Positions 9,501-27,773 of a DNA stretch of 28,360 nt are shown here, one piece after another. Made by a program: the position numbers and the translations under genes. Every line of letters starts with the position of its first letter. The stretch's first letter is position 1. The DNA comes from a virus: IMG/VR virus record IMGVR_UViG_3300025873_000032, positions 1-28,360 of that record. One strand, given 5' to 3'. Under the pieces are notes generated by a model. That model ran no database searches. It worked only from the letters and a program-made list of their open reading frames with translations, and was not told the DNA's origin.

Positions 9501-12500
9501 AGGCTGGATTAAAAGGGACAGATAAATTCTTCAATGCTATCTTTGATTCCCTATTCGATGCAAGGAAGGTTATAAAAACTAAGAAACATAGTTTTGAGTT
9601 AGACAATGATGCAATGACAACAAAGGATAGAAAGAAAATGTTTGTTGGTATCATGTCTGGCATAAACAGTGCATCATTTGGTAAAAATTTAGAGACAGGA
9701 AGAGCCCATAGTGCTTATGATTTTAAATCTACTATGGATAATGCAGTAAATAAATTACCAATGATTGAAGGTGGCGATAAAGGGAATAAATTTGACCTGT
9801 CATTTAATTCTAAAATAGCTGAACTAACATCAGGGCTAGACTTCTCAGATAGTCTCTTGCATCGCCTTGATGAGTTCAAGCTTGATAAATGGTATGGCGA
9901 TTTGAAAGAGACACTGGACTCTGAGAGTTACCAAGAGTTAAAATCTGTGTTAGGTAGACAAAGCATGTCTGTGCCACAAAATCGTCCATTAGAAATAGTC
10001 ATAAAGCATAAATTAATGAACTCAGATAGAAGAAAAGACTTTTTATGGGTATCAGAAGACCCTGATAGACCTGATTTTGGTTATTTATTGCGGAAGTATT
10101 CTGATTACTTTGTTGATATATATAAAAAACAACATCCTAACCAAGGAATTTTTAAAGAATTGCCTCAGCTTGGTGATGACATACAAAAAACAGTTAGGAA
10201 ACTTTCAAAAGAAGAAGGGAAGACTCCTGATGCTTGGCTAAAAGAAAATTTTGGTAGTGAAACTAGAATTGGAGAGCATAGAAGATATAAAGTAAATGGT
10301 AGAGTACAGTGGACATTGAATGGGAAAGCTCATAATAAGATAACTAATGCAGATGTAATTGCAATGGCTGGTGGAGGTAATGCTTTAACAATTGGGCAAA
10401 GAAAAGCAATGATTGATAACATTGTAAGATTGGCTGGCGATTCTATCTCAAATGATATGGGTGACTTTGCTAGTGCTAAATTAATTAATGATATTTGGGA
10501 CAGAGGTGCTCGTAGCCCAAAAGAAGTTGCTGAACTAGCTGAGTTTGCTGATTTTATACAGAAGGCTAAGAGTAAGCTCACTAAAGAAAGAGATGCCCTT
10601 GAGCCATTGCAGGATTTAAACTTAGATGATGCAACTAAAGAAAGAATTCTAGAGATTGATAGAGGGATAGAAAGCGAGACCACTACACGAGAGATGGACC
10701 AGCGAGAGATAGATGGTCTAATTGCGGAAAGAAAAAACAATATGAGTCGGCATGATAGGGATTTACTTGATGCTCTTTTAATATCAAGTTGGAGAAGAGG
10801 TAACCCCGAGCTTGTTAAGAGATTAGAAAAGGCTGAGAAGAAGATATTATCTAGTAAGAAATCCTATGGGTATAAATCTTGGACAGCTTTTCAAAGATAT
10901 TTAAAAGCAAAGAGAAAGCAGTTGCACACTACGCAGTTTAATAGAGTAGGGTTTGCATCAAAGGAAGTGAGTGACCATATTATCAGGCGACAGCTTGACT
11001 TAATGGAAGAAGCCTATGAGACCTTTAGGTTTTCAGATGTTGAAAGAGACCCAACAGTTGCTGAGAAAATTGTGAAAAATCTTGATGCTGAGAATAAGAA
11101 GCAACCATTGTTCAATGATAAGGGAGAAAGAACTCAAGGTCTAGCAATACAGGCTAGTGATTATAGCCATAAGACTCAGAAATACTTAGATGAGTATGCT
11201 CCATTCGCTAACTTAGAAAAGCATAAGGACATCATGGTGTCTAGCAAGTCTAAAAAAATAATGAATGAAATTATATCTAACATGGATTACTACGGTCCAA
11301 AGACCAGAGAAGACCTACATCTTATAGTCAGGGACATGATTAATAAAGATATAAATGAAATGACACTTGAAGATTGGGAGATAGTAAATAATACTTTCAG
11401 GGATTATAGAGAGGGGAGTTGGTTTCAAAAAGTGTTTGCAAAAGTTACAGATAAATTCCCAAAATTGCAGAAAAAATATTATAGGATGTTTCCAGAAGCC
11501 ATTGATAGGGATATAATGAGGCATGAAATTAAATGGAATGATACTGAAGCGTTATATAAAGACAACTATGGGAATTGGATTACTGGTAAGGCTAAGTCTG
11601 CTCAAGGATGGATGGGGGAAATTCAAAACCATATACATCTTTCTCAAGAGCTTTCTACAATGGAAACACAAAGAGAAGAAAGAGAATGGAATGAACTAAC
11701 AGAACCATATATGAACACAGAGCTTGGTCAATCCTTATGGGACTATGCTGTTAGAAAGTTTGAAGCAGATTTTATACCAAAGAATTTAAGGGAGAACAAC
11801 CCACATGATACAGTGTCTGAAGAGTATGCTAAGACATATGAAAGAAGGGTCGCTGACGCGGCTAAGGCTGTAGATTGGGAAAAGAATGCCGATAGATTAC
11901 TCGATGTTACAGGGTCTGGAAGAAAATCTGCAAGACAGATAGTAAAAGAAATACAAGAGATGCTTGCTCTAAAGAACGAAGAGAATCATCTTAGACTAAC
12001 TGGAACTGGGGACGAGGCTTTGTTACCTTTTGTAGAAAAGGCAAAAGATAAGCCCGGTATTAGTGACTTTCAGGAGCAGAAGAAAATAGAAACCTACATT
12101 GGACGGGACGCAGAAGGGGAAATTTATGAGACTGACATACCTGTTATAAGTAGAAAGAAAATGGTAGACTTTTTCTTAGACCACCTAAAACATGGGAAAC
12201 CTTTCCCAGTTAAAGAGTTTGGGGTTGATGGTTTGAGAAAAATTGTATTAGGTATGCAGATGGGACAGATACGAGAGGCAGAAAGGAGAGCTGGGGACTC
12301 AAAACCAGTAAGAGAGATACTAGATGGTGGAGTATCTGGTGCATTAGGTGCAAAGAGCTCACACATGACAATGAAGACAGGCGTACTTGGTGATAGAAAA
12401 GCTATCAATGGCATGCCTGCTATCTATGGTTACTTTCCACATGTAGCAAAGATGTTTGAAAAGGGGATACTAACGGGAGACCTAACTAAGAAGATAAAAA

Positions 12501-14344
12501 TTATATGGGAAGGGAACAGACCAAGAGAAGAGAAAGAAAAGATGGTTGCAAAATTATATCTAAGGTCAAAGCAATTGGCTGGAGATTTTGTTGAGTCCGA
12601 TACTATAAATGAATCTTGGGAGGCTATCTCTGATGCGGTCATTAGTCATATTGCTAAGAAAAAACCCGATGATTCTATTAGCTGGTTTAATAAGTTAGAC
12701 AGGGTTGGTAACCAATTCTCAAGAGAGAACCATGTTGATGGCTGGGACACTAGTCCTGAGGCGTACCTTGATTATACACAGAGTATAACAAAGACACTGT
12801 ATAAACAGATAGGTCAAATTTTATCAAGAGAAAGTATCAACGAGTTTGCAAAGCAACATCCTGATATGCCAACAGACTTAAAGACAGGCTGGATGAATTT
12901 CTTTAAACTATATGCTCAACAATCACTAGGGTTCCCTGCTATTATACCTGAAGATATGTTTGACAATCCTAACATGAAGATAAAGGGGACACTCTATGGT
13001 GCCTTAGCAGATAATCGTGTAGCATATAGGTTTGACCAGATAGGTAGAAAACTAGGATTAGTAGGCAAGGGTAAAGAGCTACCACCTGAACTAGCGTCAT
13101 TAGATAAGGTAAGTGCACAGACTGTTATAAATATAGGGAATGCTGAGGCTAAGTATGCACTTGCTACATTATTGGCTCACCCAAAATCAAGTATCGGTAA
13201 CTTTCTGGGTGGTACTCAAATGACTATAGTTAATTCTGGATTAAACAATTTTATTAATGCAAAGAGCATAGATTATTTAAGAAAAACTATTGACCCTGAG
13301 TTTAAGTCTTGGGAAGATGTAAACAAATGGGTAAGAGAACTTGGTATTATTGAAGAATTTATTATTCGAGAAGTAGGTGCTAACCCACGATTAACTGGGC
13401 TTAAATGGAACGCTTTCTTAAGAGATTTTAAACAAGCCTTGAATAAAGACCCTGATTTGCCTGATATTTCTATGAAAGATTTGATGAAGAAGCATAAGTT
13501 ATCAAAGGGAATGATGGATGTAGCTGGTAAGTTCATGTCTATCCCAGAAAGAATGCTTCGTAGGGATTCATTCATAGCTCACTATATACAAGCAAGGGAT
13601 AAGCTTGGTGGAAGAACCCTACCAAAAGACCATCCTTATTTAATAGAGATGGGTAAAAGAGGAGTTAAGGCTACGCAGTTCTTATACTCTGTCCCCTTTA
13701 GACCTATGTTTTCAGGCACAGCTATGGGTAAAGTGATAAGCAGATTCCAATTATGGGCATGGAACTCTGTAAGATATAGAAATACTATAAATAATGAAGC
13801 CGCAATTAGAGGAGTAAAACCCGGCTCAATGGAGTATGATAGATTTAAAAGGTTAATGATAGCTGATACGCTATCGTTATCATTAGGTACAATGTTTATG
13901 TATTCTTTATTCGGTTCACAGATGCCACAGCCTTATGCTTGGTTCCAAGATTTATCTGATTGGTTATTTGGCAATGAAAAGGATAGAGACAGAGCGTTCT
14001 TTGGTTCATATCCTACAGCACTTGCTCCTTTACAGTTAATAACTCCACCCAGTGCTAGACTAACAGGACCAATACTTAATGGTTTAGTTAATGGTGATTG
14101 GGAAAAGATGTCTAACTATTATATATGGACAATGTTCCCATTTGGTAGGTTAGCAAGAGACTTGTTTGGACCCGGAGGTTTGACTGAAAATCCTTACTAT
14201 GGTGTAGACAAGCTTACAGGAATACCTGTCGTTGGAGCTAAAAGGTTATCAACAAAGAGGAAGAGAGCGGAAGAAAAGGGTACAGAGTTCTGGCAACCAC
14301 CGGGATTGAAAGTTTCAAACTATTTTACAACGAGTGAAACCTAA
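3581..14344 (+). CDS. Giant multidomain virion protein: candidate DxDGD RNA polymerase with split SLOG and DUF4326-like domains
   Basis: A single 3587-residue frame, 38% of the window. Residues about 90-290 hold Gly-rich hydrophobic segments like those of ejection proteins. A PESAAK motif lies at 961-966 and a KQMQSSL segment near 1028. The string GGADLDGDKASIFF has its aspartates at 1314, 1316 and 1318, matching the metal-binding DxDGD loop of double-psi beta-barrel RNA polymerases, as in the crAss-like virion polymerase. Residues 1361-1370 (IISGAQTGAD) begin a SLOG/'putative molybdenum carrier' domain. Its second half comes only at about 1754-1830 (RTFLNV..SDGT, GGT at 1779-1781, NVAGSRES at 1817-1824). 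Between them lies a DUF4326-like domain with GNPF at 1461-1464. The C-terminal 400 residues carry an RFQLWAWNSV motif and hydrophobic segments. The arrangement fits a 'polyvalent' protein injected with the DNA. Polymerase activity is inferred. Confidence 0.7.
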   Translation: MIRHGFQPTLDQETTNQLLEQYTQDPDKFQPEQQTLLREHAEHYKIKSPDTQLAENGFGSIMSQAGKGWFAGFTTLNIDHGNADAQPRTSWERIARSLGHLGGFIGYIPGLSILSKVGKASKLATNLMKIRGHSIPLMAGKAATAGIKKTAVALSKKGINKKGEAVNAVSKFMDTVPGDMVEGALNLGIASGVSSWQDGIHAVADSMIGGGVAGAGFRAIGNLIKVPGAKPVLPGTKLKDLTKAQVNEKVLKGIAGSLMMGLPATLRGATTEEQIYDYLLGAFFGQGEQYIKNRRAIEHLYKMKAKYKDPESGVIGTAHPELVEGWEHMDSQTKELIREITTQDAEQGGVISYLLARDNLDKLKAMQEAETKAKEIYEGEPIERVRKPEEELTVSRDGKGADGETSPELVDPQADTYEALFLKTKHYVQKYLEQEWIEAPDKQVAMEDHWRIVNRKWNEVVNGNLQAESLENPAEEMIGWLSKKYKRNIAQGDAEWNFWIRWGKARKVNKPVQVGSIALDIKPANERMRRSQDPEFIDQAPDVKIDILNPALEHDAVNQAGNAKQLREPVKIIEEVFLNEYEKRHGLRPDPRTEPIYAVIDNIVNNKKSSGAYFEEQSFTDWKRRLVEEVTADAELRDTRDGMWEHLETKKAKREAKEDWIEQETERQYNNVMAMAVKQMSEKGYLYLGGKGDAERMYFVREHPFLNQKMQFEGGRHKQGAILKKFKEDLKKLDPDANELYEREKELFVKSFAENSSMSAQMRKGALSPTEAKRLFDATYLNNIMYDLSMNGLPISLEGFRKLNGKGMIKDAKAYNKRSQIWFTNGTPATREYVQKFLREEHGINIPDEGFKFALFKDTVGKVHSKSLAEEYVHTMDGEIITLPEIVDALNAEQGLPYGKKSGNVNKSFIVSNGVEEQIDMATGAITEVAHGGMLGKYQFKGADAEMAADMRARGIHMLIPESAAKQSGSRFIWDKWEWHNGKLRFRSSQRPPTEGEKGHYRLPFSDIKVVASEVTSDKYIKRQRLPKQMQSSLTPFAYKSIEQRVIDEIFERASVESFNGDIEINKLADQLLGKADPRLEDTIISNIEDLGIPRLLSLMNNPANESFTTKAYNKILRINEDIVSELQAEGEVSSEQAHELKLDAMEWQSVFDRIVRLKPDSLIPVLHKVGDSYRASVMRNYILAQIVKPRMKNSAASRMTGYDAYMQKKFPEMNGPDGDKIFYLDEGFRDLEIHLDDGKKVKLGQLWEDYSVGKRISPATKRRYKNIFSAIAIRVPMDSLSGAHKLEFRGFTGRTGFGSMLHPRTMEALGGADLDGDKASIFFGGEKHGFREEWQDAYHAQKKEYWETDDGQTLTGLTKIISGAQTGADLGGLEAGILAKITTGGVMPIGFQDERGTQPEYEKKYGVTEYVSQTSDGRAIDYAPLSKIDSLVASSKGKAVSGMRKSTPKGKEWRNPKHFGNPFSHLPKSRGIVKTKDLKETLDRYQKWLEGKGDKDIAQEQRKWILEQIDSGKLDNKRFIYMKKTSQPTDNHITRLVDFMSNRRDRRPPMGGHDTIEVPKDFVRTEFMRLYRSMTKSNKDRAIKGDKKQQVRWLDSEIHEFYDEVSRKKLNYEQLIDEALDVLRAVNKFGDNDAVIKKFKKHSKNIAKAFLSKEGTSEDFSHFFEKHASKIIGRVGVKEFEKQREGVEWSYDNIVKFIESELPKPSKKKPKKKAVDESIPILDRLPEDLSGPERIYIQSKLDSGEWKMDAQKLYLPRTFLNVNRSDGTVLFYKGRLKGGTKATVSLAKELGKPFIENPSAAELNAWLNSNNIKTLNVAGSRESKSQGLQKEVTNTIVDALKEKQGSGESIITDNKPDDMRELLTSQDTELLSRIKSPTLRWSPLIRYEASKGAYIGRNMLGPSVVNRSSILSAYNQVRSVLEHQGEETWKEYSKGMFPKLLWKLTPKTREEDLKQFRKVARATVAFASDPMDEAGLKGTDKFFNAIFDSLFDARKVIKTKKHSFELDNDAMTTKDRKKMFVGIMSGINSASFGKNLETGRAHSAYDFKSTMDNAVNKLPMIEGGDKGNKFDLSFNSKIAELTSGLDFSDSLLHRLDEFKLDKWYGDLKETLDSESYQELKSVLGRQSMSVPQNRPLEIVIKHKLMNSDRRKDFLWVSEDPDRPDFGYLLRKYSDYFVDIYKKQHPNQGIFKELPQLGDDIQKTVRKLSKEEGKTPDAWLKENFGSETRIGEHRRYKVNGRVQWTLNGKAHNKITNADVIAMAGGGNALTIGQRKAMIDNIVRLAGDSISNDMGDFASAKLINDIWDRGARSPKEVAELAEFADFIQKAKSKLTKERDALEPLQDLNLDDATKERILEIDRGIESETTTREMDQREIDGLIAERKNNMSRHDRDLLDALLISSWRRGNPELVKRLEKAEKKILSSKKSYGYKSWTAFQRYLKAKRKQLHTTQFNRVGFASKEVSDHIIRRQLDLMEEAYETFRFSDVERDPTVAEKIVKNLDAENKKQPLFNDKGERTQGLAIQASDYSHKTQKYLDEYAPFANLEKHKDIMVSSKSKKIMNEIISNMDYYGPKTREDLHLIVRDMINKDINEMTLEDWEIVNNTFRDYREGSWFQKVFAKVTDKFPKLQKKYYRMFPEAIDRDIMRHEIKWNDTEALYKDNYGNWITGKAKSAQGWMGEIQNHIHLSQELSTMETQREEREWNELTEPYMNTELGQSLWDYAVRKFEADFIPKNLRENNPHDTVSEEYAKTYERRVADAAKAVDWEKNADRLLDVTGSGRKSARQIVKEIQEMLALKNEENHLRLTGTGDEALLPFVEKAKDKPGISDFQEQKKIETYIGRDAEGEIYETDIPVISRKKMVDFFLDHLKHGKPFPVKEFGVDGLRKIVLGMQMGQIREAERRAGDSKPVREILDGGVSGALGAKSSHMTMKTGVLGDRKAINGMPAIYGYFPHVAKMFEKGILTGDLTKKIKIIWEGNRPREEKEKMVAKLYLRSKQLAGDFVESDTINESWEAISDAVISHIAKKKPDDSISWFNKLDRVGNQFSRENHVDGWDTSPEAYLDYTQSITKTLYKQIGQILSRESINEFAKQHPDMPTDLKTGWMNFFKLYAQQSLGFPAIIPEDMFDNPNMKIKGTLYGALADNRVAYRFDQIGRKLGLVGKGKELPPELASLDKVSAQTVINIGNAEAKYALATLLAHPKSSIGNFLGGTQMTIVNSGLNNFINAKSIDYLRKTIDPEFKSWEDVNKWVRELGIIEEFIIREVGANPRLTGLKWNAFLRDFKQALNKDPDLPDISMKDLMKKHKLSKGMMDVAGKFMSIPERMLRRDSFIAHYIQARDKLGGRTLPKDHPYLIEMGKRGVKATQFLYSVPFRPMFSGTAMGKVISRFQLWAWNSVRYRNTINNEAAIRGVKPGSMEYDRFKRLMIADTLSLSLGTMFMYSLFGSQMPQPYAWFQDLSDWLFGNEKDRDRAFFGSYPTALAPLQLITPPSARLTGPILNGLVNGDWEKMSNYYIWTMFPFGRLARDLFGPGGLTENPYYGVDKLTGIPVVGAKRLSTKRKRAEEKGTEFWQPPGLKVSNYFTTSET

Positions 14345-19439: not shown

Positions 19440-19615
19440 TATCTTATTCCTAATTCAAGGTTAAGTTCTAGTTTCCAGAGTATTATTTGACATAGTATAT
19501 GACTACTATCATTGTCTTCGCATATATAATGGATAAATCCAATAGAGAAAAATTTAAAAAGCGTAAACTTTATAGCATTTTCACCAGTTCTTATGTAAAA
19601 GATATATTCCATCAT
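19439..19615 (-). CDS. Small hypothetical protein (58 aa) in a perfect overlap slot
   Basis: A short frame fits exactly between its neighbours. ATG 19615 overlaps the stop of the Gp157-like gene (ATGA), and its TAA overlaps the ATG of the AT-hook gene (TAATG). This double coupling is strong evidence that it is translated. The protein is hydrophobic and aromatic (FTLFKFFSIGFIHYICEDN) with a Leu-rich C-terminus (ILWKLELNLELGIR). One weak membrane segment at about 16-32 is possible. No family is recognised. Confidence 0.6.
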   Translation of the reverse strand: MMEYIFYIRTGENAIKFTLFKFFSIGFIHYICEDNDSSHILCQIILWKLELNLELGIR

Positions 19616-20172
19616 GAGCGTTTAACTCTCTTCACTTTTTGTATGCTGGCACCATTGGGCAATTCTATCCCTTCTTTTGCAAGGGACATACAAGCCTTTC
19701 TGAGCTTAGCTTTGTCTACTTTTTGCACTATTTCTGTTTTAATGAAATCATCTGGAAGTGCGCTCTGGTCAAGAATGACAACAGAACCATATGTTTCATA
19801 GAGCTTATACCTCGCAGTATCTGTTTCCAATACACCATTTTCATCACCAAGTTCTTCGATTAACATCGGCAACAGTACCTTGTTTAAGTAATCGGAAGTT
19901 CTTGTAAGGGCGTATTTTCTATTACGAAGACGAGCAATTTCACTTTTATGTACTTCTATCTCTGCATCTATTAGGTATTCTCTCTCCTTGATATTTTGTG
20001 AGAAAAAGTCAATGCCATCAGCCTTGCCTTTTATCTTCCTTTGTATCAAAGCCTGCTCCTCTAAAAGAGCAGGGAGAGTTTCTTCGTTAGTGTCCAGCTC
20101 CATCCTTAATACAATGTCCATATGGTCACCAATTAATTCTCTTGCTGTTTGTTTCTTTTTATCTCTACTCAT
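19612..20172 (-). CDS. Sipho_Gp157-like protein
   Basis: A 186-residue protein with the two-part layout of the Sipho_Gp157 family. The long N-terminal coiled coil (residues about 30-110) contains IARLRNRKYALTRTSDYLN, followed by the family's C-terminal block YGSVVILDQSALPDDFI ... DKAKLRKACM ... GIELPNGASI. Members occur next to recombination and replication genes in many phages and were first linked to phage resistance in Streptococcus thermophilus. Biochemical function is not established. The start overlaps the stop of the primase-helicase gene by 8 bases and is preceded by AAGGAG. Its position downstream of the ATPase, SSB-like and helicase genes matches the usual family context. Confidence 0.75.
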   Translation of the reverse strand: MSRDKKKQTARELIGDHMDIVLRMELDTNEETLPALLEEQALIQRKIKGKADGIDFFSQNIKEREYLIDAEIEVHKSEIARLRNRKYALTRTSDYLNKVLLPMLIEELGDENGVLETDTARYKLYETYGSVVILDQSALPDDFIKTEIVQKVDKAKLRKACMSLAKEGIELPNGASIQKVKRVKRS

Positions 20173-21910
20173 AATCTCTCCTTAACCTAAATGACGGTCT
20201 CCATTTCAAAGGAATATCTTCAAAAAGTTCACCATCAGAGTTTTTAAACAACGATAGATATTTCATGGTATCTTTAGCTTGCCCATTTATACCAATGACT
20301 TTACGAGACGCATTCTCAATAGCACCACTACCTTTACCAGCATATAAATCAAGAACATCTGCTTTAGAGTATTCTCTACTTACCTGTGACAATTGTATAA
20401 TTATTATATCATTATTAACAGCCATGTTTGATAGACTGTGACTAATATATCTCACACCTTCATATTCCCCTCTATGGGCTGGACCGGGGTCAATAAGGTC
20501 AATATAATCAACAACTACGACTTGAGGGTCTAGCTCTTTAATCTTTTCAGCTATGTCATCAATCGTTGGTTGTATAGTCTGTATAATAATGTGGTCTAAT
20601 AATCCTTTATGGTCTTCTGCTATTTGCTTTGCGTTCTGTTCTACTTGTTGTTTATCTACATCGGCAACTATCTGAATATGTCTTTTATGCATGTACCAAT
20701 CACTCAATTCTAAACTTAAATACAATGTATTCAGTTGTTGGTCTGGGTCTATTCTGTCTTGTGCAGAATTATAACCACAGATAATATTTTGAGCAATCGT
20801 TGTTTTCCCCGAGCCAGTAGGACCAAAAATAGTCACTAATTCACCGGGATAAATCATGCAATCCAAATTTGGGAGCCCAAAGATTTTTGATAAATCTATA
20901 GTTTTCCCACTAAAATCTGTTGACAATCTTTCTTCTAATCTCCGTTGCAATTGTGTGAAGTCCTTTACATCTATAGTATAGTCCTTCCTCTTGTAATGAA
21001 TACATTGTGTTTGACACCTAGCTTTCATCTCTGGGTCTTTACAACCATATTGATACCCATTATTGTACACGCTTTCGACCTTCTCCAAAATAATGTTCTC
21101 CGATAACTGGTCGCCATTCCAGTAAAGTAATGCGGCTTTTGTAGCATCACTTGGTATCCCATTTCTTCTGAAGTGTGAAGCAATTCTGAGTATTATATTG
21201 TTTCTACTACCAGCCTGTGGTCCTTCTTTCCACATAATTTGTACACAGGGTACAACCTTATTAGGTTCGGACACAGCTTTGAAAGCCCTTACGGGCTCAA
21301 CGGCAGTTTTGATAGATTTATCTAAGGATTCATCTCCCCACATAACATCTTCCCAATCAATACAGGATGGTTCTCTAGCCAGAGATTTAACTTCGTCAAA
21401 CTTCATACCAAGAAAAGTCTTAAATGGCATAAGAGTCTTAAATAGATTAGATTTAGGGTTCTTTGTCCCTTCTTCCCTATATATAGCAGTTCTCATGTAA
21501 ACAGCGGGGTCAATATCCACGCTTGTTATCAATTGAGTTAAAGTCTGCTTAACTATATAAGGCAAGTCTTGATGAGGTTTAAATCCAAAACAATCGGCAC
21601 TAACAAGTATATGATACCCTGTGCCACTGAAATAAATTCTGTAATTCCCATCCTTTAAACCTAATTCCATTAATTCTTTTACGCAAGTCTGTGCTTGTTG
21701 TAAGGTGTAACTATCACTATTGTCTTTTTTATCAATATCAATAAGAATATTATCACAATATCTCTTACCAATATAATCTTTTAAAGAGTGGTTAGTTCTT
21801 ACAAAGTCAACAGCATTGACATCATATAAATAATGAGACCTATAAATAGGTATACTGCTTCCCTTAGCAAAGAATTCATCTAAGTTTTTCTGGTATTCTC
21901 CAAGAGTCAT
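20165..21910 (-). CDS. Primase-helicase: AEP-type primase fused to DnaB-like helicase
   Basis: A 581-residue protein from ATG 21910. A GTG at 21964 would add 18 residues encoded through a hairpin and has no SD. The N-terminal part has archaeo-eukaryotic primase features: DID at 58-60 for metal binding and SGTGYH at 95-100 for the catalytic His. A Cys cluster (C290, C299, C303 in YGCKDPEMKARCQTQC) resembles primase-associated zinc elements. The C-terminal RecA-fold helicase has Walker A GPTGSGKT (363-370), SLELSDWYMHKR, Walker B VVVVDYIDL with D468, and IIIIQLSQVSR. It would synthesise primers and unwind DNA at the phage fork. Upstream lie the SSB-like and Sak4-like genes, and downstream the Gp157-like gene, so this is the core of the replication module. 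Confidence 0.85.
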   Translation of the reverse strand: MTLGEYQKNLDEFFAKGSSIPIYRSHYLYDVNAVDFVRTNHSLKDYIGKRYCDNILIDIDKKDNSDSYTLQQAQTCVKELMELGLKDGNYRIYFSGTGYHILVSADCFGFKPHQDLPYIVKQTLTQLITSVDIDPAVYMRTAIYREEGTKNPKSNLFKTLMPFKTFLGMKFDEVKSLAREPSCIDWEDVMWGDESLDKSIKTAVEPVRAFKAVSEPNKVVPCVQIMWKEGPQAGSRNNIILRIASHFRRNGIPSDATKAALLYWNGDQLSENIILEKVESVYNNGYQYGCKDPEMKARCQTQCIHYKRKDYTIDVKDFTQLQRRLEERLSTDFSGKTIDLSKIFGLPNLDCMIYPGELVTIFGPTGSGKTTIAQNIICGYNSAQDRIDPDQQLNTLYLSLELSDWYMHKRHIQIVADVDKQQVEQNAKQIAEDHKGLLDHIIIQTIQPTIDDIAEKIKELDPQVVVVDYIDLIDPGPAHRGEYEGVRYISHSLSNMAVNNDIIIIQLSQVSREYSKADVLDLYAGKGSGAIENASRKVIGINGQAKDTMKYLSLFKNSDGELFEDIPLKWRPSFRLRRDYE

Positions 21911-21912
21911 AA

Positions 21913-21936
21913 GGAGTCCCCGTTGCTGAGGACTCC
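21913..21936 (-). other. Hairpin abutting the primase-helicase start
   Basis: GGAGTCC and GGACTCC form a perfect 7-bp stem with a 10-base loop, ending 2 bases before ATG 21910 in the leftward mRNA. It occupies the place where an SD would be, so it may restrict initiation. It lies in the 82-base gap (21911-21992) after the SSB-like gene, which also has a GGTATACC palindrome at 21978-21985. Confidence 0.5.
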
Positions 21937-21992
21937 CTATTGCTACTTCAACATATAATTCCACTATTTATGTAGTTGGTATACCCGTGAAA

Positions 21993-22613
21993 CTAAAACG
22001 GCAATTCGTCTGCTGACGCAGTCGCTGTCGTTGAAGGAGACTTGGCAACATCTGTAGAAGATGCCTCCTTAAGAAAGCCCTTTTGTTGCATGTAGGTTAC
22101 ATAACTCGAAAGTTCTGCTTTCCCTTTTGCATCATTAGTGCATATCTTGCCAAGTACTCTTTTATATATCTTATCGCCAGACTTTTTAGGAGCCTCACGA
22201 TATATGTATATATAAAATCTTAGGGGTGCTTCCAACATGGGGTTGTCAGACCCGTTCATAGTATTAATATGAGCGTTTAGAGCACCAGTGATACTTGTAA
22301 TGGCTGTGCCATCTTCGTTCTCCCACTCGCCCTCTGTATTTATTCCGCCAGTAAACCCAATAGCATCTTTAAAATAATTAAAGTGTCTAATCATTTTATT
22401 AGCTTGTATACTGCCATCCGCTTCTCTTTCAAAAGAACCTTTAATGGCATGTACTTGGGGGTACTTGCTTCCTTTCAGGGTAAAATGTACATCTACCCAT
22501 ATATCAGCCCAATCAAATTGGTCTGACTTGTCTTCAACCTTCATGACACCAGCTTCAAAGTAACCAGTAAAATCATTGTTGGTAGAAGAAGTTTTGGTTT
22601 TTAATAACGCCAT
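21993..22613 (-). CDS. Single-stranded DNA-binding-like protein
   Basis: A 206-residue protein ending in a flexible Ser/Thr/Ala-rich tail and the terminal hexapeptide ADELPF (201-206). This matches the acidic-hydrophobic tips (DDxPF type) by which SSB proteins recruit partners. The body is beta-rich with aromatic residues (FDWADIWVDVHFTLKG, RFYIYIYREAP), compatible with an OB-type fold, but no standard SSB signature is obvious. It starts 2 bases after the stop of the ATPase gene with AGGAGG at good spacing. The neighbouring Sak4-like recombinase and helicase make an SSB role likely. Confidence 0.65.
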   Translation of the reverse strand: MALLKTKTSSTNNDFTGYFEAGVMKVEDKSDQFDWADIWVDVHFTLKGSKYPQVHAIKGSFEREADGSIQANKMIRHFNYFKDAIGFTGGINTEGEWENEDGTAITSITGALNAHINTMNGSDNPMLEAPLRFYIYIYREAPKKSGDKIYKRVLGKICTNDAKGKAELSSYVTYMQQKGFLKEASSTDVAKSPSTTATASADELPF

Positions 22614-22614
22614 G

Positions 22615-23454
22615 TTATTTAACCTCCTCTTCTGTGTATTCTGTGATTGCCTTTGTTATATCATCGTATGTGAAAGGCAAGAGTTTCCCATTTAAAGGTC
22701 GTAGCCTTGAGCCAACTGTTCTCTCATCATAAGCCTGAAAAGAGACATTAGGTACAAGTTCGTCTTTTTCGACAGTACTATAACCTATAACATCTGCTCT
22801 GGCACAAAGTGCATAGCCTAAACCTCTTGGGAGGTCAGGACTTAATTGTACTTTTCCGTCTTGCATTTGGGATTGTTTTGAATGGGAAGTAATCACTAAG
22901 GTAGAACCATGTTTCTTCATAAGCATTTGTAAACGCTTAACTAAATCAACATTTTTCCTCCTAGCTTTTCCCCAATCAGCTCCCCACTGACCTTCACCCA
23001 TAGATGTAATACCAAGTTCTTCACATACGGCATGTTCAATCCAGCCGTTAATAGTATCGACAGTATCGATAACTAAAGTTTCATATGGTAACTTAGTCCA
23101 ATTATCCTTTAACCAAAGATAAACTTCAGCTAAAGAATAGACTTCCATGGGTTTCCCTTTATCCTTCCCAACACGGTTATAATAACCTCGTTCCTTAATA
23201 GGAACAATGTGCTTATCTCCTTGCTCATCAAGCGTAAAGGGGGGGTTTAATGATGCAACTGTAATAACATTTGCACCGTCAACAAAATCAGCACCTAAAT
23301 CTGTATCGAGAACAAGAACACCTTTAGTGCCCTTCTTCGACCAGTTAGCCGCCGCAGTTGTTTTGCCCGTTTTGGGCTGACCGATAAAATACCAAGTCAG
23401 CCCACCGGGATGTTCTGTCCAATCAGTTGAAACTGTTCGGGGTTGTATTTGCAT
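22615..23454 (-). CDS. RecA-fold ATPase, Sak4/AAA_24-like
   Basis: A 279-residue P-loop ATPase. Walker A is GQPKTGKTT (25-33), a second strand VLVLDTD lies at 46-52, Walker B is TLVIDTVD (126-133), and a later strand STLVITSHSKQ carries the sensor-type polar residues. This size and layout match phage AAA_24/Sak4-type proteins, compact RecA relatives that pair with SSB to promote single-strand annealing. Its start (ATG 23454, GGAGG upstream) lies inside the 3' end of the E1-like gene by 32 bases, so the Ubl cassette and the recombination genes share one message. A nucleotide-binding role other than recombination is possible. Confidence 0.75.
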   Translation of the reverse strand: MQIQPRTVSTDWTEHPGGLTWYFIGQPKTGKTTAAANWSKKGTKGVLVLDTDLGADFVDGANVITVASLNPPFTLDEQGDKHIVPIKERGYYNRVGKDKGKPMEVYSLAEVYLWLKDNWTKLPYETLVIDTVDTINGWIEHAVCEELGITSMGEGQWGADWGKARRKNVDLVKRLQMLMKKHGSTLVITSHSKQSQMQDGKVQLSPDLPRGLGYALCARADVIGYSTVEKDELVPNVSFQAYDERTVGSRLRPLNGKLLPFTYDDITKAITEYTEEEVK

Positions 23455-24181
23455 ACGACATGTCCTCCACTATAATAGGGGTATTTGAATCATCTTCTCC
23501 ACAGTAAAAGTTCATCATCTTTATGTCTAAAGGCGATAAACCTTGCCAAATATACTGATAAAAAGGTCTTTCTGTCAAGAAATTAAACAGTTGGGTTACC
23601 CCTAAACCTGCAATTAAATTGGCACAAAAGATTGTATGTTTCATGGTACAAGGTGCTTCCTCTCCAGATTCTCCGTTAGGGAACCAATAGTCCATATAAA
23701 CATCGCTATTCTTTGTCACAGTAATACAAGACATTGTTAAAGCATCCATTCTCATGTCTATAAACACTTCTCTATCTTCTTTTTCTTTCCACTTTTCGTA
23801 AACTAGTTTTCTTGAATCCATACTATCTGTACATACTATGGTTTTGTCGGACAAGACTTGACCGTTGCCCGTGAATTTCTCCACGAGCATTTCGGTCTTA
23901 ACATCTTCTCCACCATAGTTTTCTGCTATCTTATTTGCCATTTTACATTTAGAGTTATCATCACCTCTGGAATACCACTCTTCTGGATACAGAGTTGTAC
24001 CAAAATTATGTTCTTCCATTGTATCGTCATCATAACCCCTTATAAAATCAAAACCCATAGTAGCTAGTAACATAATTACTGCGCTTCCTATACCGCCTAA
24101 ACCTACGATTGTTACATCGTCAAGCTTCTGTTGTGGTATTAAGTCTTGATTTCTCAGGTGTTTCCGGGAGAGCGAGGACAT
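23423..24181 (-). CDS. E1/ThiF-like adenylating enzyme of a ubiquitin-like cassette
   Basis: 252 residues from ATG 24181, which has AAAGGAGG six bases upstream. An ATG at 24199 lies in front of that site and is rejected. The Rossmann loop VGLGGIGS is at 26-33, the acidic loop YDDDTMEEHNFG at 50-61 corresponds to the ThiF DxDxVxxxN region, K80 lies downstream, and CTDSMDSR at 117-124 holds the second acidic site. Later motifs IDMRMD (141-146) and APCTMKHTIFCANLIAGLG (176-194) match phage/plasmid ThiF-family proteins. The usual NLxRQ arginine is absent (NFGTT). E1-like enzymes adenylate the C-terminus of a Ubl. Candidate relay cysteines are C152, C178 and C186. The gene overlaps the JAB gene by 62 bases. 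Confidence 0.8.
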   Translation of the reverse strand: MSSLSRKHLRNQDLIPQQKLDDVTIVGLGGIGSAVIMLLATMGFDFIRGYDDDTMEEHNFGTTLYPEEWYSRGDDNSKCKMANKIAENYGGEDVKTEMLVEKFTGNGQVLSDKTIVCTDSMDSRKLVYEKWKEKEDREVFIDMRMDALTMSCITVTKNSDVYMDYWFPNGESGEEAPCTMKHTIFCANLIAGLGVTQLFNFLTERPFYQYIWQGLSPLDIKMMNFYCGEDDSNTPIIVEDMSYANTTPNSFN

Positions 24182-25049
24182 CCATAACCTCCTTTGCATT
24201 AGCGTTAGATGAATCGTTCCAAGAGTTTATAAAACTGAGATCGTCAATCCCCAATTCTTTTAACTCGTCTTTGAAAGTTTCAAACAAAATCTGGTTATCT
24301 TTATAAGCTTCCGCTAGTAAAGTGATATAACCACTTTCGGGTTCAGCCATATAAGCCGCCCGATGTTGTAAACCTTCTATGACTCTTTTGTCACTGTTAG
24401 TGTTACCTGCTTCATGACCAAATGGGTAGCCATACCCACCACTTCCATTAAAGAGAGTTCCTTGATTATATTGTCCATTTCTGTAATAACCAGTAGTCAC
24501 TACAACAGATTCTACTTTCTTCTTCTTCTCTAATCCCTTTGCAATGTAACTCCATTTCTGTTCATCTACATCTGGTGGCATGATTAACTGAATATCAGCT
24601 TCATCTGCTTCTTCAACATGTACAATTTCATATTGGTCAGCATATGATACTGCAAATGCAAACTTCTCTTTCTTACTTGCTACAACAGTAGAACAATAAA
24701 AGTTCTGTATTGGAGCATTGTCTTCCAGACAGTCTGTATCAGTTCCACTAAAGAAAGCACCCATAGTATGGTGAGAATGTATTATTCCCATCATACACTT
24801 TTCTGTCTCTGGGAAATTTTTCCAAGTTTTCTTGAGTATTTTTGCAGTATCGCCAGCGTCTATTACTGTTCTAGTCCCGTGACCTAAGTCAACAGGATGA
24901 AAATGAACTAATTCAAATCCCGAAGGATATTTTTCATCTTTTTCGAAATGTGGCTTGTACCATGCAGGTCCACTCCACTCAGTTGACGGGAACTTCTTTA
25001 AAAAGTAGTTCACTTTGTTCCATGTTCGGTAAGGTATTCTTAAGAACAT
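24120..25049 (-). CDS. JAMM (JAB/MPN+) metalloprotease
   Basis: A 309-residue protein with a complete JAMM signature: E24 in STEWSGPAWY, then H91-S-H93, S101 and D104 in HSHHTMGAFFSGTD. The spacing HxH-x7-S-x2-D is exactly that of active zinc isopeptidases, which cleave after the C-terminus of ubiquitin-like proteins. The fold occupies about residues 1-150. The rest is a low-complexity Gly/Tyr/Asn linker (NGQYNQGTLFNGSGGYGYP) and a helical C-terminal part of unknown role. The start has AAGGAG at 8 bases and lies 71 bases inside the E2-like gene, so both are made from one message. Likely jobs are maturing the Ubl and/or removing it from targets. Confidence 0.85.
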   Translation of the reverse strand: MFLRIPYRTWNKVNYFLKKFPSTEWSGPAWYKPHFEKDEKYPSGFELVHFHPVDLGHGTRTVIDAGDTAKILKKTWKNFPETEKCMMGIIHSHHTMGAFFSGTDTDCLEDNAPIQNFYCSTVVASKKEKFAFAVSYADQYEIVHVEEADEADIQLIMPPDVDEQKWSYIAKGLEKKKKVESVVVTTGYYRNGQYNQGTLFNGSGGYGYPFGHEAGNTNSDKRVIEGLQHRAAYMAEPESGYITLLAEAYKDNQILFETFKDELKELGIDDLSFINSWNDSSNANAKEVMDVLALPETPEKSRLNTTTEA

Positions 25050-27117
25050 TTTTTAACTCCTTGCTTTTTGTAGCATATCCAGAAATAAATTCTCTATATG
25101 CAGTTGTTATTACTATTTTGTCCATTGTGTCTCTGAGCTCTTTTGCCTCTACAAGACTTTTGGGGAATTCTGGGAATAATACATCCCACAGTCTGTGACA
25201 GTTTTTTAACTGCCCTGCCCTCTCGTCTTTATCAAGGTCTCTAATGTCATATAAATAACCATTCATGTACTTACTCATTGCATCTTGGTCTTCTATATTA
25301 CATCTCACACTAATGGTCTCACTTAACCAGTTGCCCATATTCCCAAACTCTCCAATAACCCATTGTTGAAAGAATCTAGACATCATTTCAGTCCAAGCAT
25401 CATTAATACTTAATGATACACCTTTGTAGGTCTTACTAAAATCAACTTTTGCAATTTTAGATGAATTTCCAGTTAATAATAAATTAATAATATCACGCTG
25501 GTGTTCCATCTTGACATTTTGCGAACCTTTTCTCATACTTCTAAAGGTTGATGCTATTTTATCAAATAAAATAAACATAAAGTTGTATTCAGGAAGATTC
25601 TCCTTAATAGAGTATGACTGTTCTTTATAGACAAACAGATTACCATCGAATCTTGAGTCACTATCATTTTCACTTAGATAACCTTCTTCAGTTAACATCG
25701 CATAATCATGATTTCTTAACACTCTTGCTTCTTGGTAAGACTCTTCAAAGACAGCCGCTGGTTCTGAGTTTCTTACAGCCTGTTCCCAGCTTATCAGTTT
25801 ATCCATTATTTCATTAATATTATTGTTTTTACCTAATAATAATAACAAATTAGAACAACCATCGGTTCTTGGGCTATTACCTTCACTATCGGCTTGTCCA
25901 AACAATTGCATCAAACTGCCAAATCTGTAATCACTACCAGAATTAACCGTTCTGACCATCTCTAACTGACTTGCTTTGTCTTCAATGTTATGGTAATTAA
26001 CATGTGCCCAAGTATCCAGTCCAGCAAAGAATAGTGCTTTTAAATCACCATATGACCAAGTATACCCTGAGCGTTTATTAATCCATTGAGTAATTCTAAG
26101 ACTAAGTTCACAATCACTCCATTTAGCATTAAAGTTGTGCCAATCTGTGTATTCTTTCATCATTTCTTCATAATCATCTTCATACTCGTCTCTATCAGGA
26201 TAATTTAAACATACACGAGGTGATTCAACACCTACTATGTCATGGATTTTCTTGATATAATAAGAGTATTGACGATTGTTCATTTCTTCATTATCTTCAT
26301 AAAGAAAGAAATTGATGAGTTTACTCCAAATGTTCCAGTTCTCATTCTCTTCAGCACAAAAATCAATTAACCAATCTTCTCCAAGAACACTTACTAATAC
26401 ATTGTTGTATGTTCTTGCTAAATCTGGTCTTCCAAGGTTTAAATTACCACCCGTACACCAAGGAAAAGGTTGACGATGATGTGCTCTGTCAGTTGGTATC
26501 CTATCATGGTCATATACATTTACATTGAAAAATGTACTACGATAGTTATAATCACAAAGAAATCCCCTTAGTGTCTCTACTTGATGATAAGCAGTTTGTC
26601 TCTGTGAATCTTCAAGATTACCAGCCCAATATCCCCAACAAGCCTGTGCTTGTGCGTCAATATGAGGATGATAAAGTTTCTGAAAAGGAAAATCAGCTAA
26701 TTTATAAGCATCTTCAACTTTTTCTTCCATTAAATATCCTATAGGTTTACATTTCTGTAAGAATCTTACATGACAAGGTTCATAACCAGTCAGTCTAGCT
26801 CCTTTCTTCATGTCCCAAGCAACATATACTGGTGGAAGATAAAAGTATTTCTTTACCCGTATTCTACAATCTCTTAAAATTAGCATTAAATACTCTCTTT
26901 TTTCATCATATATAAATTCGTATTCTTTTAAAAATTTATAAACTTCTTCACCTACAAATTTTTCAGGAATACTTATTTTATTAGCAAAAAGATTATTTAT
27001 CATTTCTTCAGATTTTATTTCATATTTTACAGTTTCTCCAGTATTGGTGTATCCTGTATATTTTACTGTTTCTTTTCCAGTTAATCTCTTTAGTTTTCTT
27101 TCTTTTGATGCAAACAT
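24979..27117 (-). CDS. Large protein with an E2-like (UBC-fold) N-terminal region
   Basis: 712 residues from ATG 27117, which has GGGAGG 8 bases upstream. The frame is open to 27174, but that stretch is hairpin DNA. Residues about 88-165 show the pattern of prokaryotic E2-like (Prok-E2/PRTRC_B) proteins: YFYLPPVYVAW (91-101), a variable insert, then FPFQKLYHPHI and a Cys-Trp-Gly (C160-W161-G162), where the family has a Phe-Pro/His strand followed by the 'CxG' site. C160 is the candidate thioester cysteine. A PWCTGGNLNLG element follows at 219-229. The remaining 480 residues are helical, with an acidic patch (DRDEYEDDYEEMM), and match nothing I know. Position between Ubl and JAB supports an E2 or E2/E3-type role. 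Confidence 0.6.
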   Translation of the reverse strand: MFASKERKLKRLTGKETVKYTGYTNTGETVKYEIKSEEMINNLFANKISIPEKFVGEEVYKFLKEYEFIYDEKREYLMLILRDCRIRVKKYFYLPPVYVAWDMKKGARLTGYEPCHVRFLQKCKPIGYLMEEKVEDAYKLADFPFQKLYHPHIDAQAQACWGYWAGNLEDSQRQTAYHQVETLRGFLCDYNYRSTFFNVNVYDHDRIPTDRAHHRQPFPWCTGGNLNLGRPDLARTYNNVLVSVLGEDWLIDFCAEENENWNIWSKLINFFLYEDNEEMNNRQYSYYIKKIHDIVGVESPRVCLNYPDRDEYEDDYEEMMKEYTDWHNFNAKWSDCELSLRITQWINKRSGYTWSYGDLKALFFAGLDTWAHVNYHNIEDKASQLEMVRTVNSGSDYRFGSLMQLFGQADSEGNSPRTDGCSNLLLLLGKNNNINEIMDKLISWEQAVRNSEPAAVFEESYQEARVLRNHDYAMLTEEGYLSENDSDSRFDGNLFVYKEQSYSIKENLPEYNFMFILFDKIASTFRSMRKGSQNVKMEHQRDIINLLLTGNSSKIAKVDFSKTYKGVSLSINDAWTEMMSRFFQQWVIGEFGNMGNWLSETISVRCNIEDQDAMSKYMNGYLYDIRDLDKDERAGQLKNCHRLWDVLFPEFPKSLVEAKELRDTMDKIVITTAYREFISGYATKSKELKNVLKNTLPNMEQSELLFKEVPVN

Positions 27118-27147
27118 AAGGATTTCCTCCCTGTTAGTTATTAATTC

Positions 27148-27203
27148 GTTGCAAAGTGCAACATTATGCAACAAGGGTATAGGTTATTTGTTTCCCTATA
27201 CCC
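27148..27203 (-). other. Tandem hairpins between the Ubl and E2-like genes
   Basis: In the 114-base gap (27118-27231), GGGTATAGG / CCTATACCC form a perfect 9-bp stem (27175-27183 with 27195-27203). Just downstream in the leftward message, GTTGCA / TGCAAC form a 6-bp stem with a 3-base loop (27148-27162). The first stem is followed by TTGTTGC, only a weak T-tract. The pair could attenuate transcription or protect the upstream mRNA, so that the small Ubl is made in excess over the large E2-like protein. Confidence 0.6.
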
Positions 27204-27231
27204 CGTTACGGTATTCGAAAGCAGTGCTAAA

Positions 27232-27471
27232 CTACCGCACTTGAACTTTAAAAGTTCTGTGCCCAGACTCTTGGCGAGCTTTCTGGAAAGAGACTACTGC
27301 CCCGTCTTTAAGACGAGTATTTGCAGTAGCGGCTTTACCACCAACATAGATAGCCACTTGGTTATCCGTGATGCCAAAACCTTCTTTCTCAGCAATCTCC
27401 GCAGGAGTGGATGCTTCCACAGTCTTAGGCACGCCACCAGTGTGGTATGCCATATAGCGAACTTCAGCCAT
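27232..27471 (-). CDS. Ubiquitin-like beta-grasp protein (ThiS/MoaD-like Ubl)
   Basis: A 79-residue protein with the strand-helix-strand pattern of ThiS/MoaD/ubiquitin-like folds: KTVEASTPAEIAEKEGF (16-32; strand, turn, helix), QVAIYVGGKAATANTRLKDG (38-57; strand, Gly-Gly turn, then the LKDG turn typical of ThiS 'LkDGD'), and VVSFQKARQESG. The chain does not end in Gly-Gly. In alignment to ThiS/MoaD the tail position falls near S69-G70, with nine residues (HRTFKVQVR) beyond it. A JAMM enzyme could trim that extension, or the protein is a non-conjugated family member. The ATG overlaps the previous stop (TAATG) and has GGAGG at 7 bases. It heads the cassette that also encodes E2-like, JAB and E1-like proteins. 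Confidence 0.7.
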   Translation of the reverse strand: MAEVRYMAYHTGGVPKTVEASTPAEIAEKEGFGITDNQVAIYVGGKAATANTRLKDGAVVSFQKARQESGHRTFKVQVR

Positions 27472-27773
27472 TAATAGACCTCCGATATGCTTTGAAGGTA
27501 ATTACTTACGCTTCTGGTTGTCACTGCACTTGCAGTCTTCCTAATGAAAAATCGAGCAATAGGTTTCTTTCCATCCTTAATCATAGTCTTTCTGTAAATA
27601 CCTTGAGCCCTTCTCAAGATAAATACGCCTTCTTCATATGATGGATAGATACCTATTAACACTTTCTCCCATTCAGTGGGAACTTCTACTTTCTCACCCT
27701 TTATGGTGACTTTCTTTGTCTTGAACCACGATGTATAAGACACTTCAAAATTTACCTTCTGGTTCGTAGCCAT
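27471..27773 (-). CDS. Hypothetical basic protein coupled to the Ubl gene (100 aa)
   Basis: A 100-residue protein with no recognised family. The first half is beta-rich (KVNFEVSYTSWFKTKKVTIKG), followed by VPTEWEKVLIGIYPSYEEGVF, then a basic helical part (LRRAQGIYRKTMIKDGKKP, IARFFIRKTASAVTT). It begins inside the 3' end of the 69-residue membrane protein gene (GAGGG upstream) and ends on the Ubl start (TAATG). Because it is tightly coupled to the Ubl gene, it is a candidate substrate or accessory factor of the Ubl cassette, but this rests on position alone. Confidence 0.6.
   Translation of the reverse strand: MATNQKVNFEVSYTSWFKTKKVTIKGEKVEVPTEWEKVLIGIYPSYEEGVFILRRAQGIYRKTMIKDGKKPIARFFIRKTASAVTTRSVSNYLQSISEVY

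What the first reader, a model, noticed from the sequence alone, without database searches (positions are those of the whole stretch)
23423..27471. Phage-borne complete ubiquitin-like cassette: Ubl, E2-like, JAMM protease and E1-like enzyme in one overlapping gene set
Seen: four consecutive minus-strand genes with a beta-grasp pattern, an E2-like region with candidate C160, a perfect JAMM signature (E24, H91, H93, S101, D104) and a ThiF Rossmann loop with downstream acidic sites. Known: this combination defines conjugation-type Ubl systems, and the order Ubl-E2-JAB-ThiF recalls the plasmid PRTRC cassette. Bacterial anti-phage systems (Bil, type II CBASS) also use E1/E2/JAB sets. Inferred: the phage itself conjugates and removes a Ubl, perhaps on replisome proteins or a host defence factor. 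A phage carrying the whole set, fused by overlaps to its replication operon, is the strongest novelty candidate here.
Basis: partly seen in the sequence, partly recalled or inferred. Interest (0 to 1): 0.9.

Follow-up and report, generated by a model that had tools for sequence, protein, structure and literature searches.

The report
Phage ubiquitin-like tagging kit for replication
Hundreds of bacterial viruses, including cultured gut crAss phages and fish-pathogen phages, carry what looks like a complete ubiquitin-style protein-tagging pathway inside their DNA-replication genes, and in this marine group the tagging enzyme ends in a peptide that looks built to dock on the bacterial replication clamp.

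Summary
Four overlapping minus-strand genes encode a beta-grasp Ubl, an E2-like protein, a JAMM protease and a ThiF/E1-like enzyme. The order is invariant in more than 50 viral contigs and the catalytic residues are essentially unchanged (E2-like HPH-x7-C-x-G, JAMM E/H/H/S/D, E1 Cys184). Related cassettes occur in cultured Bacteroides phages crAss001 (gp79-gp76) and DAC15 and in Flavobacterium phages. All Ubls share an invariant Ser-Gly followed by a variable tail, the mark of a pro-Ubl. AlphaFold gives a beta-grasp. The E2 fold is supported by motif, gene order and a weak match to UEV domains, but no E2 profile hits it. E1 tree and curated cut-offs separate it from plasmid PRTRC.

New here: in the marine clade the E2-like protein ends in a conserved sliding-clamp-binding motif (QxxLF/QxxLxF), in 40 of 44 C-termini against 2.4% of other ORFs, kept by codon choice in a reading-frame overlap. 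These contigs show no DNA polymerase or clamp of their own. Best reading: a phage Ubl-conjugation pathway aimed at the replisome, in this clade at the host beta clamp. Conjugation and substrate are inferred, not shown.

The parts
27232..27471 (-). Ubl precursor, 79 aa, beta-grasp; invariant Ser69-Gly70 (codons at 27262-27267), then a 9-residue tail predicted to be removed
   Evidence: (S69, G70 invariant in 32/32)
24979..27117 (-). E2-like protein, 712 aa: N-terminal UBC/UEV-like region, then a long all-helical region and a disordered tail
26638..26670 (-). E2-like active-site motif H150-P-H152-x7-C160 (C160-x-G162)
   Evidence: H150, H152, C160, G162 invariant in 37 aligned members; spacing as in UBC HPNI-x6-C
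25000..25017 (-). C-terminal QSELLF (residues 701-706), putative sliding-clamp-binding motif in the low-confidence tail, inside the E2/JAB overlap
   Evidence: consensus from PMC11139829
24120..25049 (-). JAMM/JAB metalloprotease, 309 aa; E24, H91, S92, H93, S101, D104 invariant
23423..24199 (-). E1-like (ThiF-family) enzyme, 258 aa (likely start Met7, at 24181); GxGGxGS, D57, D59, K84, D125, C184
22615..23454 (-). Sak4-like AAA annealing/recombination protein, directly after ThiF in about 70 marine loci
21993..22613 (-). putative single-strand-binding protein (C-terminal DELPF), next in the block
   Evidence: no Pfam or PHROG hit
20165..21964 (-). primase/DnaB-type helicase
19612..20172 (-). 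Gp157 / Mu Gam-like protein

Best explanation
The cassette is a complete, virus-specific ubiquitin-like conjugation pathway that works as part of phage DNA replication. Proposed steps: (1) The JAMM protease trims the Ubl precursor after the invariant Ser-Gly. (2) The ThiF-like E1 adenylates the Gly and may hold it on Cys184. (3) The Ubl passes to Cys160 of the E2-like protein. (4) In the marine clade, which shows no DNA polymerase or clamp of its own, the E2's C-terminal QxxL(x)F tail docks on the host beta sliding clamp, so the Ubl is attached to the clamp or to a clamp-bound protein. (5) The JAMM protease removes it again. Shown: the genes, synteny, invariant catalytic residues, beta-grasp model, pro-Ubl pattern, replication context, the conserved tail motif and its selection in the E2 frame. 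Inferred: every chemical step, clamp binding and the substrate.
For: Order Ubl-E2-JAB-ThiF-Sak4-SSB-primase/helicase is stable in 70-76 marine loci. Catalytic residues: E2 Cys 35/35 and JAMM 32/32; E1 Cys in every aligned E1. Ubl SG invariant in 32/32, with tails of 0-2 residues in 26 of 36 distinct proteins and 8 or more in the others. Ubl fold: TtuB Z 8.2, MoaD 7.3. Clamp motif in 40/44 marine E2 C-termini against 47/1921 other ORFs. The overlapping JAB codon before Lys12 ends in C in 16/19 clusters, 3.9 expected, although its amino acid varies (N, S, L, D, T). In the window the pentamer is broken but the hexamer form is present. PolA was absent from all 11 marine contigs searched and found in many phages of the other clades, whose E2s lack the motif in 58/59. 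No DnaN, PolB or DnaE in the contigs searched. Related cassette in crAss001, DAC15 and Flavobacterium phages.
Against: No sequence profile places the 712-aa protein in an E2 family, and whole-model Foldseek finds nothing. The UEV match is weak (Z about 4). The E1 lacks an adenylation Arg seen in MoeB and PRTRC_ThiF: the position is Thr in the marine clade. No E3 was recognised. The clamp motif is absent in other clades, so it is not needed by the system as a whole; motif and missing polymerase both follow phylogeny, so their link rests on few independent events. Host unknown, so no DnaN could be tested. No biochemical evidence.
Confidence: 0.55

Rival explanations
1. The cassette conjugates the Ubl as described, but the main target is not the clamp; it is a phage protein (for example SSB, Sak4 or helicase) or another host protein. 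The C-terminal motif only co-localises the E2 with replication, or binds something else.
For: The cassette exists without the motif in crAss-like and Flavobacterium phages. Sak4, SSB and helicase are its constant neighbours in the marine clade.
Against: The motif is kept in 40/44 marine E2s and fits both the pentamer and hexamer forms of the clamp consensus.
Confidence: 0.25
2. It is a sulfur-carrier system, like ThiS/ThiF, TtuB or CysO-Mec: the Ubl carries a thiocarboxylate for a nucleotide, tRNA or cofactor modification, and the 712-aa protein is the acceptor enzyme.
For: The best structural matches of the Ubl are sulfur carriers TtuB and MoaD. The E1 Cys sits where ThiF/MoeB have a conserved Cys (position by established knowledge of the family). 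JAMM proteins act on the sulfur carrier CysO (established knowledge).
Against: C-terminus is SG, not GG; no rhodanese or known sulfurtransferase seen beside it; an E2-like motif with UBC spacing is constant; linked to replication genes rather than metabolic genes.
Confidence: 0.1
3. It is a counter-defence or superinfection module: the phage tags host defence proteins, or uses the JAMM to undo host Bil or CBASS conjugates.
For: Bacterial defence systems Bil and type II CBASS use E1/E2/JAB sets (PMC11354881, PMC12355090).
Against: It is not an accessory island: it occupies a fixed place in the replication operon of the marine clade and is likewise next to the primase region in crAss001. Bil features are not met.
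Confidence: 0.1

Closest known systems
Plasmid PRTRC system (Iyer et al. 2006 operon type 6d, PMC1779556)
   Same: Ubl (PRTRC_C) - E2 (B) - JAB (A) - ThiF in the same order; Ubl with a conserved C-terminal Gly and in some members a tail; borne by mobile DNA; ThiF profiles align at E 2e-11 including the Cys
   Different: No PRTRC_E, F or ParB genes identified; phage E2 has the classical HP(N/H) His that PRTRC_B lacks and a long helical C-terminal region; curated HMM cut-offs missed by far; E1s split 100/100 in the tree
BilABCD / bacterial ISG15-like defence
   Same: Ubl, E2, JAB and E1 as four genes
   Different: BilA has two Ubl domains and BilD a double adenylation domain plus a Cys domain; BilB has a CEHH motif (PMC11354881); none of these is seen here; replication-linked phage genes, not host defence
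Type II CBASS Cap2/Cap3
   Same: E1-like, E2-like and JAB-type activities
   Different: Cap2 is one E2-E1 fusion acting on a CD-NTase, not on a Ubl; here all are separate and a true Ubl is present
Eukaryotic PCNA ubiquitylation/SUMOylation (RAD6-RAD18, UBC9-SIZ1)
   Same: Functional analogy only: a Ubl pathway recruited to the replication clamp
   Different: Here the E2 itself would carry the clamp-binding peptide; bacterial clamp; phage-encoded; conjugation not shown
Lambda-type tail-assembly Ubl/JAB (TAPI/TAPK)
   Same: Phage-borne Ubl with a JAB peptidase (PMC1779556)
   Different: No E1 or E2 and a tail-assembly context; here replication context and a full E1-E2 set

Membership tests
PRTRC system (operon type 6d) | ThiF and JAB over the curated TIGR03736/TIGR03735 cut-offs | tested here: not met
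   19.5 of 144.75 bits and 14.7 of 101.8 bits
PRTRC system (operon type 6d) | PRTRC_E, PRTRC_F and ParB neighbours | tested here: inconclusive
   no gene in the block was matched to them and hhalign with PRTRC_F is nil, but no dedicated search for E or ParB was run; the neighbours found are Sak4, SSB-like and primase/helicase
PRTRC system (operon type 6d) | E1 groups with PRTRC_ThiF | tested here: not met
   phage E1s and PRTRC_ThiF lie on opposite sides of a 100/100 branch (no further outgroup)
PRTRC system (operon type 6d) | Order Ubl-E2-JAB-ThiF and Ubl ending in one conserved Gly | tested here: met
E2 (UBC-fold) superfamily | Invariant catalytic Cys, with the HPN-type His-Pro 10 residues before it | tested here: met
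E2 (UBC-fold) superfamily | UBC fold | tested here: inconclusive
   N-domain matches are mainly TSG101 UEV at Z 3.5-4.1, rmsd about 4, 115-126 residues; Foldseek no hit
E2 (UBC-fold) superfamily | Match to a Pfam E2 profile | tested here: not met
   none of 37 members
Ubiquitin-like beta-grasp | Beta-grasp fold and a conserved C-terminal Gly | tested here: met
   the reactivity of the Gly was not tested
JAMM/JAB metalloprotease | E ... HxH-x7-S-x2-D | tested here: met
E1-like ThiF/MoeB family | Pfam ThiF over cut-off, GxGGxGS, DxD, Lys, Asp | tested here: met
E1-like ThiF/MoeB family | Adenylation Arg (MoeB R73, as in the NxxRQ motif) | tested here: not met
   Thr68 in the window, Thr in the marine alignment, at the position where PRTRC_ThiF has Arg
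BilABCD | Two-domain Ubl; E1 with Cys domain; BilB CEHH motif | tested here: not met
   79-aa Ubl, 258-aa E1, no E or H at the BilB spacing after C160; features from PMC11354881
Type II CBASS | E2-E1 fusion with a CD-NTase | tested here: not met
   separate genes; no CD-NTase among the window proteins scanned
Beta-clamp-binding proteins | Qx[x][L/M][F/L] or Qxx[L/M]x[F/L] peptide in a disordered terminus | tested here: met
   consensus in PMC11139829; position 2 is often not a large aliphatic residue (S, G, T, A), which weakens affinity in E. coli studies
Beta-clamp-binding proteins | Physical binding to DnaN | not testable with these tools
   no complex prediction or assay available

The most novel reading that the evidence does not exclude
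Phages encode their own ubiquitin-like conjugation pathway to modify the bacterial replisome, with an E2 that carries its own sliding-clamp-binding peptide: a bacterial-virus parallel of PCNA ubiquitylation/SUMOylation, ancient enough to span crAss-like, Flavobacterium and marine phages, whereas known bacterial E1-E2-Ubl systems are plasmid-borne or defensive.
Probability: 0.45. Interest if true: 0.97.

Novelty: new variant of a known kind. Interest (0 to 1): 0.87.

Why it matters
Prokaryotic ubiquitin-like conjugation is known from defence systems and archaea; PRTRC-type plasmid systems have been predicted since 2006 (PMC1779556). Finding a complete, conserved set in the replication operon of hundreds of phages would make protein tagging a core viral replication function. 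It becomes testable at once because crAss001, DAC15 and Flavobacterium psychrophilum phages carrying it are in culture. It also gives annotation to genes now called 'hypothetical', 'thiamine biosynthesis protein' and 'metalloprotease'. The clamp-binding tail offers a concrete substrate hypothesis and a parallel with PCNA modification.

Tried and rejected
Pfam, PHROGs, NCBIfam and PADLOC on the 712-aa protein: no hit worth reporting. Its profile against PDB sequences: nothing. Whole-model Foldseek against PDB and viral models: nothing. PRTRC_F as the source of the helical C-terminal region: hhalign nil. Pfam Prok_Ub in two phages: none, and no control rang. Bacterial relatives: none in about 85,000 genomes with the pattern of the first scan, one crAss-like contig in a Spirochaetia MAG with the second; the pattern scan reaches only close motif carriers. 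ThiF in plasmids: none. TerL_nuclease family PF20441: no match in any contig. A MoeB outgroup for the tree could not be extracted. Worry that the conserved Gln/Leu of the E2 tail is a by-product of the overlapping JAB frame: tested by codon and rejected as the sole cause. Literature search found no description of this phage cassette in the held open-licence papers; subscription papers and preprints were not searchable.
Full report
**What is there.** The window is a 28.4-kb IMG/VR virus record. On the minus strand, in transcription order, lie a 79-aa Ubl (27471-27232), a 712-aa protein (27117-24979), a 309-aa JAB protease (25049-24120) and a 258-aa ThiF protein (24199-23423). A Sak4-like ATPase, an SSB-like protein, a primase/DnaB-type helicase and Gp157 follow. 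Successive genes from the 712-aa protein to Sak4 overlap by 71, 80 and 32 bp. JAB and ThiF exceed Pfam's curated cut-offs.

**It is a conserved cassette.** A scan of viral contigs with ThiF gave 139 relatives, the best 80 of which were fetched. Iterated profiles found Ubl-E2-JAB-ThiF in the same order in about 50 of them, the rest being mostly cut by contig ends. In non-redundant alignments the 712-aa family has Cys160 and Gly162 in 35/35 and H150, P151 and H152 in 33-34/35; the curated 37-member alignment keeps H150, H152, C160 and G162 in all. JAB keeps E24, H91, S92, H93, S101 and D104 in 32/32. E1 keeps Cys184, Lys84 and Asp125 in 18/18. Sak4, SSB and primase/helicase follow in 70, 76 and 74 marine loci. 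Four of 15 marine contigs tested show a phage terminase.

**It is not only marine.** ThiF and JAB relatives occur in 78 and 74 deposited phage genomes: Flavobacterium phages, crAss-like phages of Bacteroides and others. Reading the neighbourhoods showed a related four-gene set. In crAss001 these are gp79 (Ubl with KKIKSG and a long C-terminal extension), gp78 (HSH...CTG), gp77 (JAMM) and gp76 (E1, CSYKQT), just after the primase gene and near uracil-DNA glycosylase. A second scan found 378 relatives, the best 80 of which were fetched. In 55 of 61 distinct loci the gene before JAB carries HxH...CxG. Profiles link marine and crAss Ubl (E 1.5e-5) and E2 (E 5e-4), with the HxH, CxG and SG columns aligned.

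**The Ubl.** Ser69-Gly70 is invariant in 32/32, preceded by a conserved VSFQK strand. What follows is variable: 0-2 residues in 26 of 36 distinct proteins and 8 or more in the others. In the crAss and Flavobacterium phages the SG is followed by a long extension. This is how precursors processed to a C-terminal Gly look. AlphaFold (pLDDT 76) gives a beta-grasp. The structural second look gives TtuB 8.2, MoaD 7.3, SAMP1 7.1 and ubiquitin 6.2, with G70 at the end of the aligned MoaD chain. Foldseek's best hits are ubiquitin and SUMO chains at E 7e-4.

**The E2-like protein.** The motif LYHPHI-x6-C has the spacing of UBC's HPNI-x6-C. The AlphaFold model (pLDDT 81, pTM 0.74) has a helix, strands, the motif loop and two helices over residues 57-188, then an all-helical region and a low-confidence end. 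In the structural second look, the hits on the N-domain are mainly TSG101 UEV entries (Z 3.5-4.1, 115-126 of about 142 residues). No sequence profile reaches an E2 family. I put the UBC assignment at about 0.8.

**The clamp-binding tail.** In the marine clade the E2-like protein ends in QSELLF, QGELF, QTELF, QAELF, QTDLF, QVPLSF, QVHLSF, QVQLSF or QIPLFF. This matches the pentamer and hexamer forms of the beta-clamp-binding motif (Q-phi-x-[L/M]-[F/L], Q-phi-x-[L/M]-x-[F/L]; PMC11139829), though position 2 is often small. 40 of 44 distinct E2 C-termini have it, against 47 of 1921 other ORFs in the same loci. Because the motif lies in the overlap with JAB, I tested whether JAB explains it. The Gln codon borrows the last base of the JAB codon before Lys12. 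That amino acid varies, yet the base is C in 16 of 19 clusters with 3.9 expected from the same genes' codon use. In the window itself a JAB TAC codon breaks the pentamer Phe, and the hexamer Phe is present instead. So the motif appears to be selected in the E2 frame.

**Fit with the replication machinery.** None of 11 marine contigs (30-53 kb) holds DNA polymerase A. No DnaN or PolB was found in the contigs searched for them, nor DnaE in a wider set. crAss-like and other large phages often carry PolA, and their E2s lack the motif in 58 of 59. This fits E2 recruitment to the host clamp where the phage relies on host Pol III. Phylogeny confounds it, and contigs may be incomplete.

**Mechanism proposed.** JAB trims pro-Ubl to SG; E1 activates it; E2 Cys160 carries it; in this clade the tail brings the E2 to the host clamp; the Ubl is attached to the clamp or a clamp client and removed by JAB. 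The chemistry and the substrate are inferred. One warning sign: an adenylation Arg of MoeB (named in PMC12355090) and PRTRC_ThiF is Thr in the marine clade.

**Relation to known systems.** The plasmid PRTRC cassette has the order C-F-B-A-ThiF, a Ubl ending in a conserved Gly, and E1 profiles that align at 2e-11. But curated cut-offs are missed by far, PRTRC_B lacks the HP His, phage and plasmid E1s split at 100/100, and the neighbours found are different. Bil and CBASS features are not met. Iyer et al. 2006 (PMC1779556) described tail-assembly Ubl/JAB in phages, but in the passages I read no E1-E2 set in phages. I found no paper on the phage cassette in the held library, which lacks most subscription papers and all preprints.

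**Verdict.** A real, widespread, virus-borne Ubl-conjugation-type cassette; a new variant of a known kind, with a testable link to the replication clamp.

Noticed in passing
window 3581-14344 (+): A 3587-aa protein with a circularly permuted YpsA/SLOG domain (cpYpsA, E 1.6e-26), reminiscent of giant polyvalent proteins.
   Followed up: no
window 21993-22613 (-): The 206-aa SSB-like protein has no Pfam or PHROG match, but its family usually ends in a conserved C-terminal Phe (DELPF, DMPF, TPF, NKF, TSF), like an SSB tip.
   Followed up: partly
window 27471-27773 (-): A 100-aa protein whose stop overlaps the Ubl start; its family is found in 13 marine loci upstream of the Ubl; no known domain.
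   Followed up: partly
L083, L084, L085, L185, L186: crAss-like Ubl genes, or the neighbouring gene in L085, carry a C-terminal extension that often ends in a similar peptide (EIDDMF, EINKMF, EISDMF), possibly another docking motif.
   Followed up: no
L163, L152, L158, L164: More divergent phages (up to 180 kb) carry related genes too; L163 has JAB after ThiF, and L152 and L158 have HPHI/HPHV...CxG E2-like proteins.
   Followed up: partly
L168 (SABI01000248.1): A contig filed under a Spirochaetia MAG carries crAss-like E1 and apparent uracil-DNA glycosylase genes; probably phage contamination of the bin.
   Followed up: no
G002 (record of L016), 28786-30306: The terminase match reads through 2 TAG and 2 TAA codons, suggesting an intron, frameshift or assembly error.
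   Followed up: no
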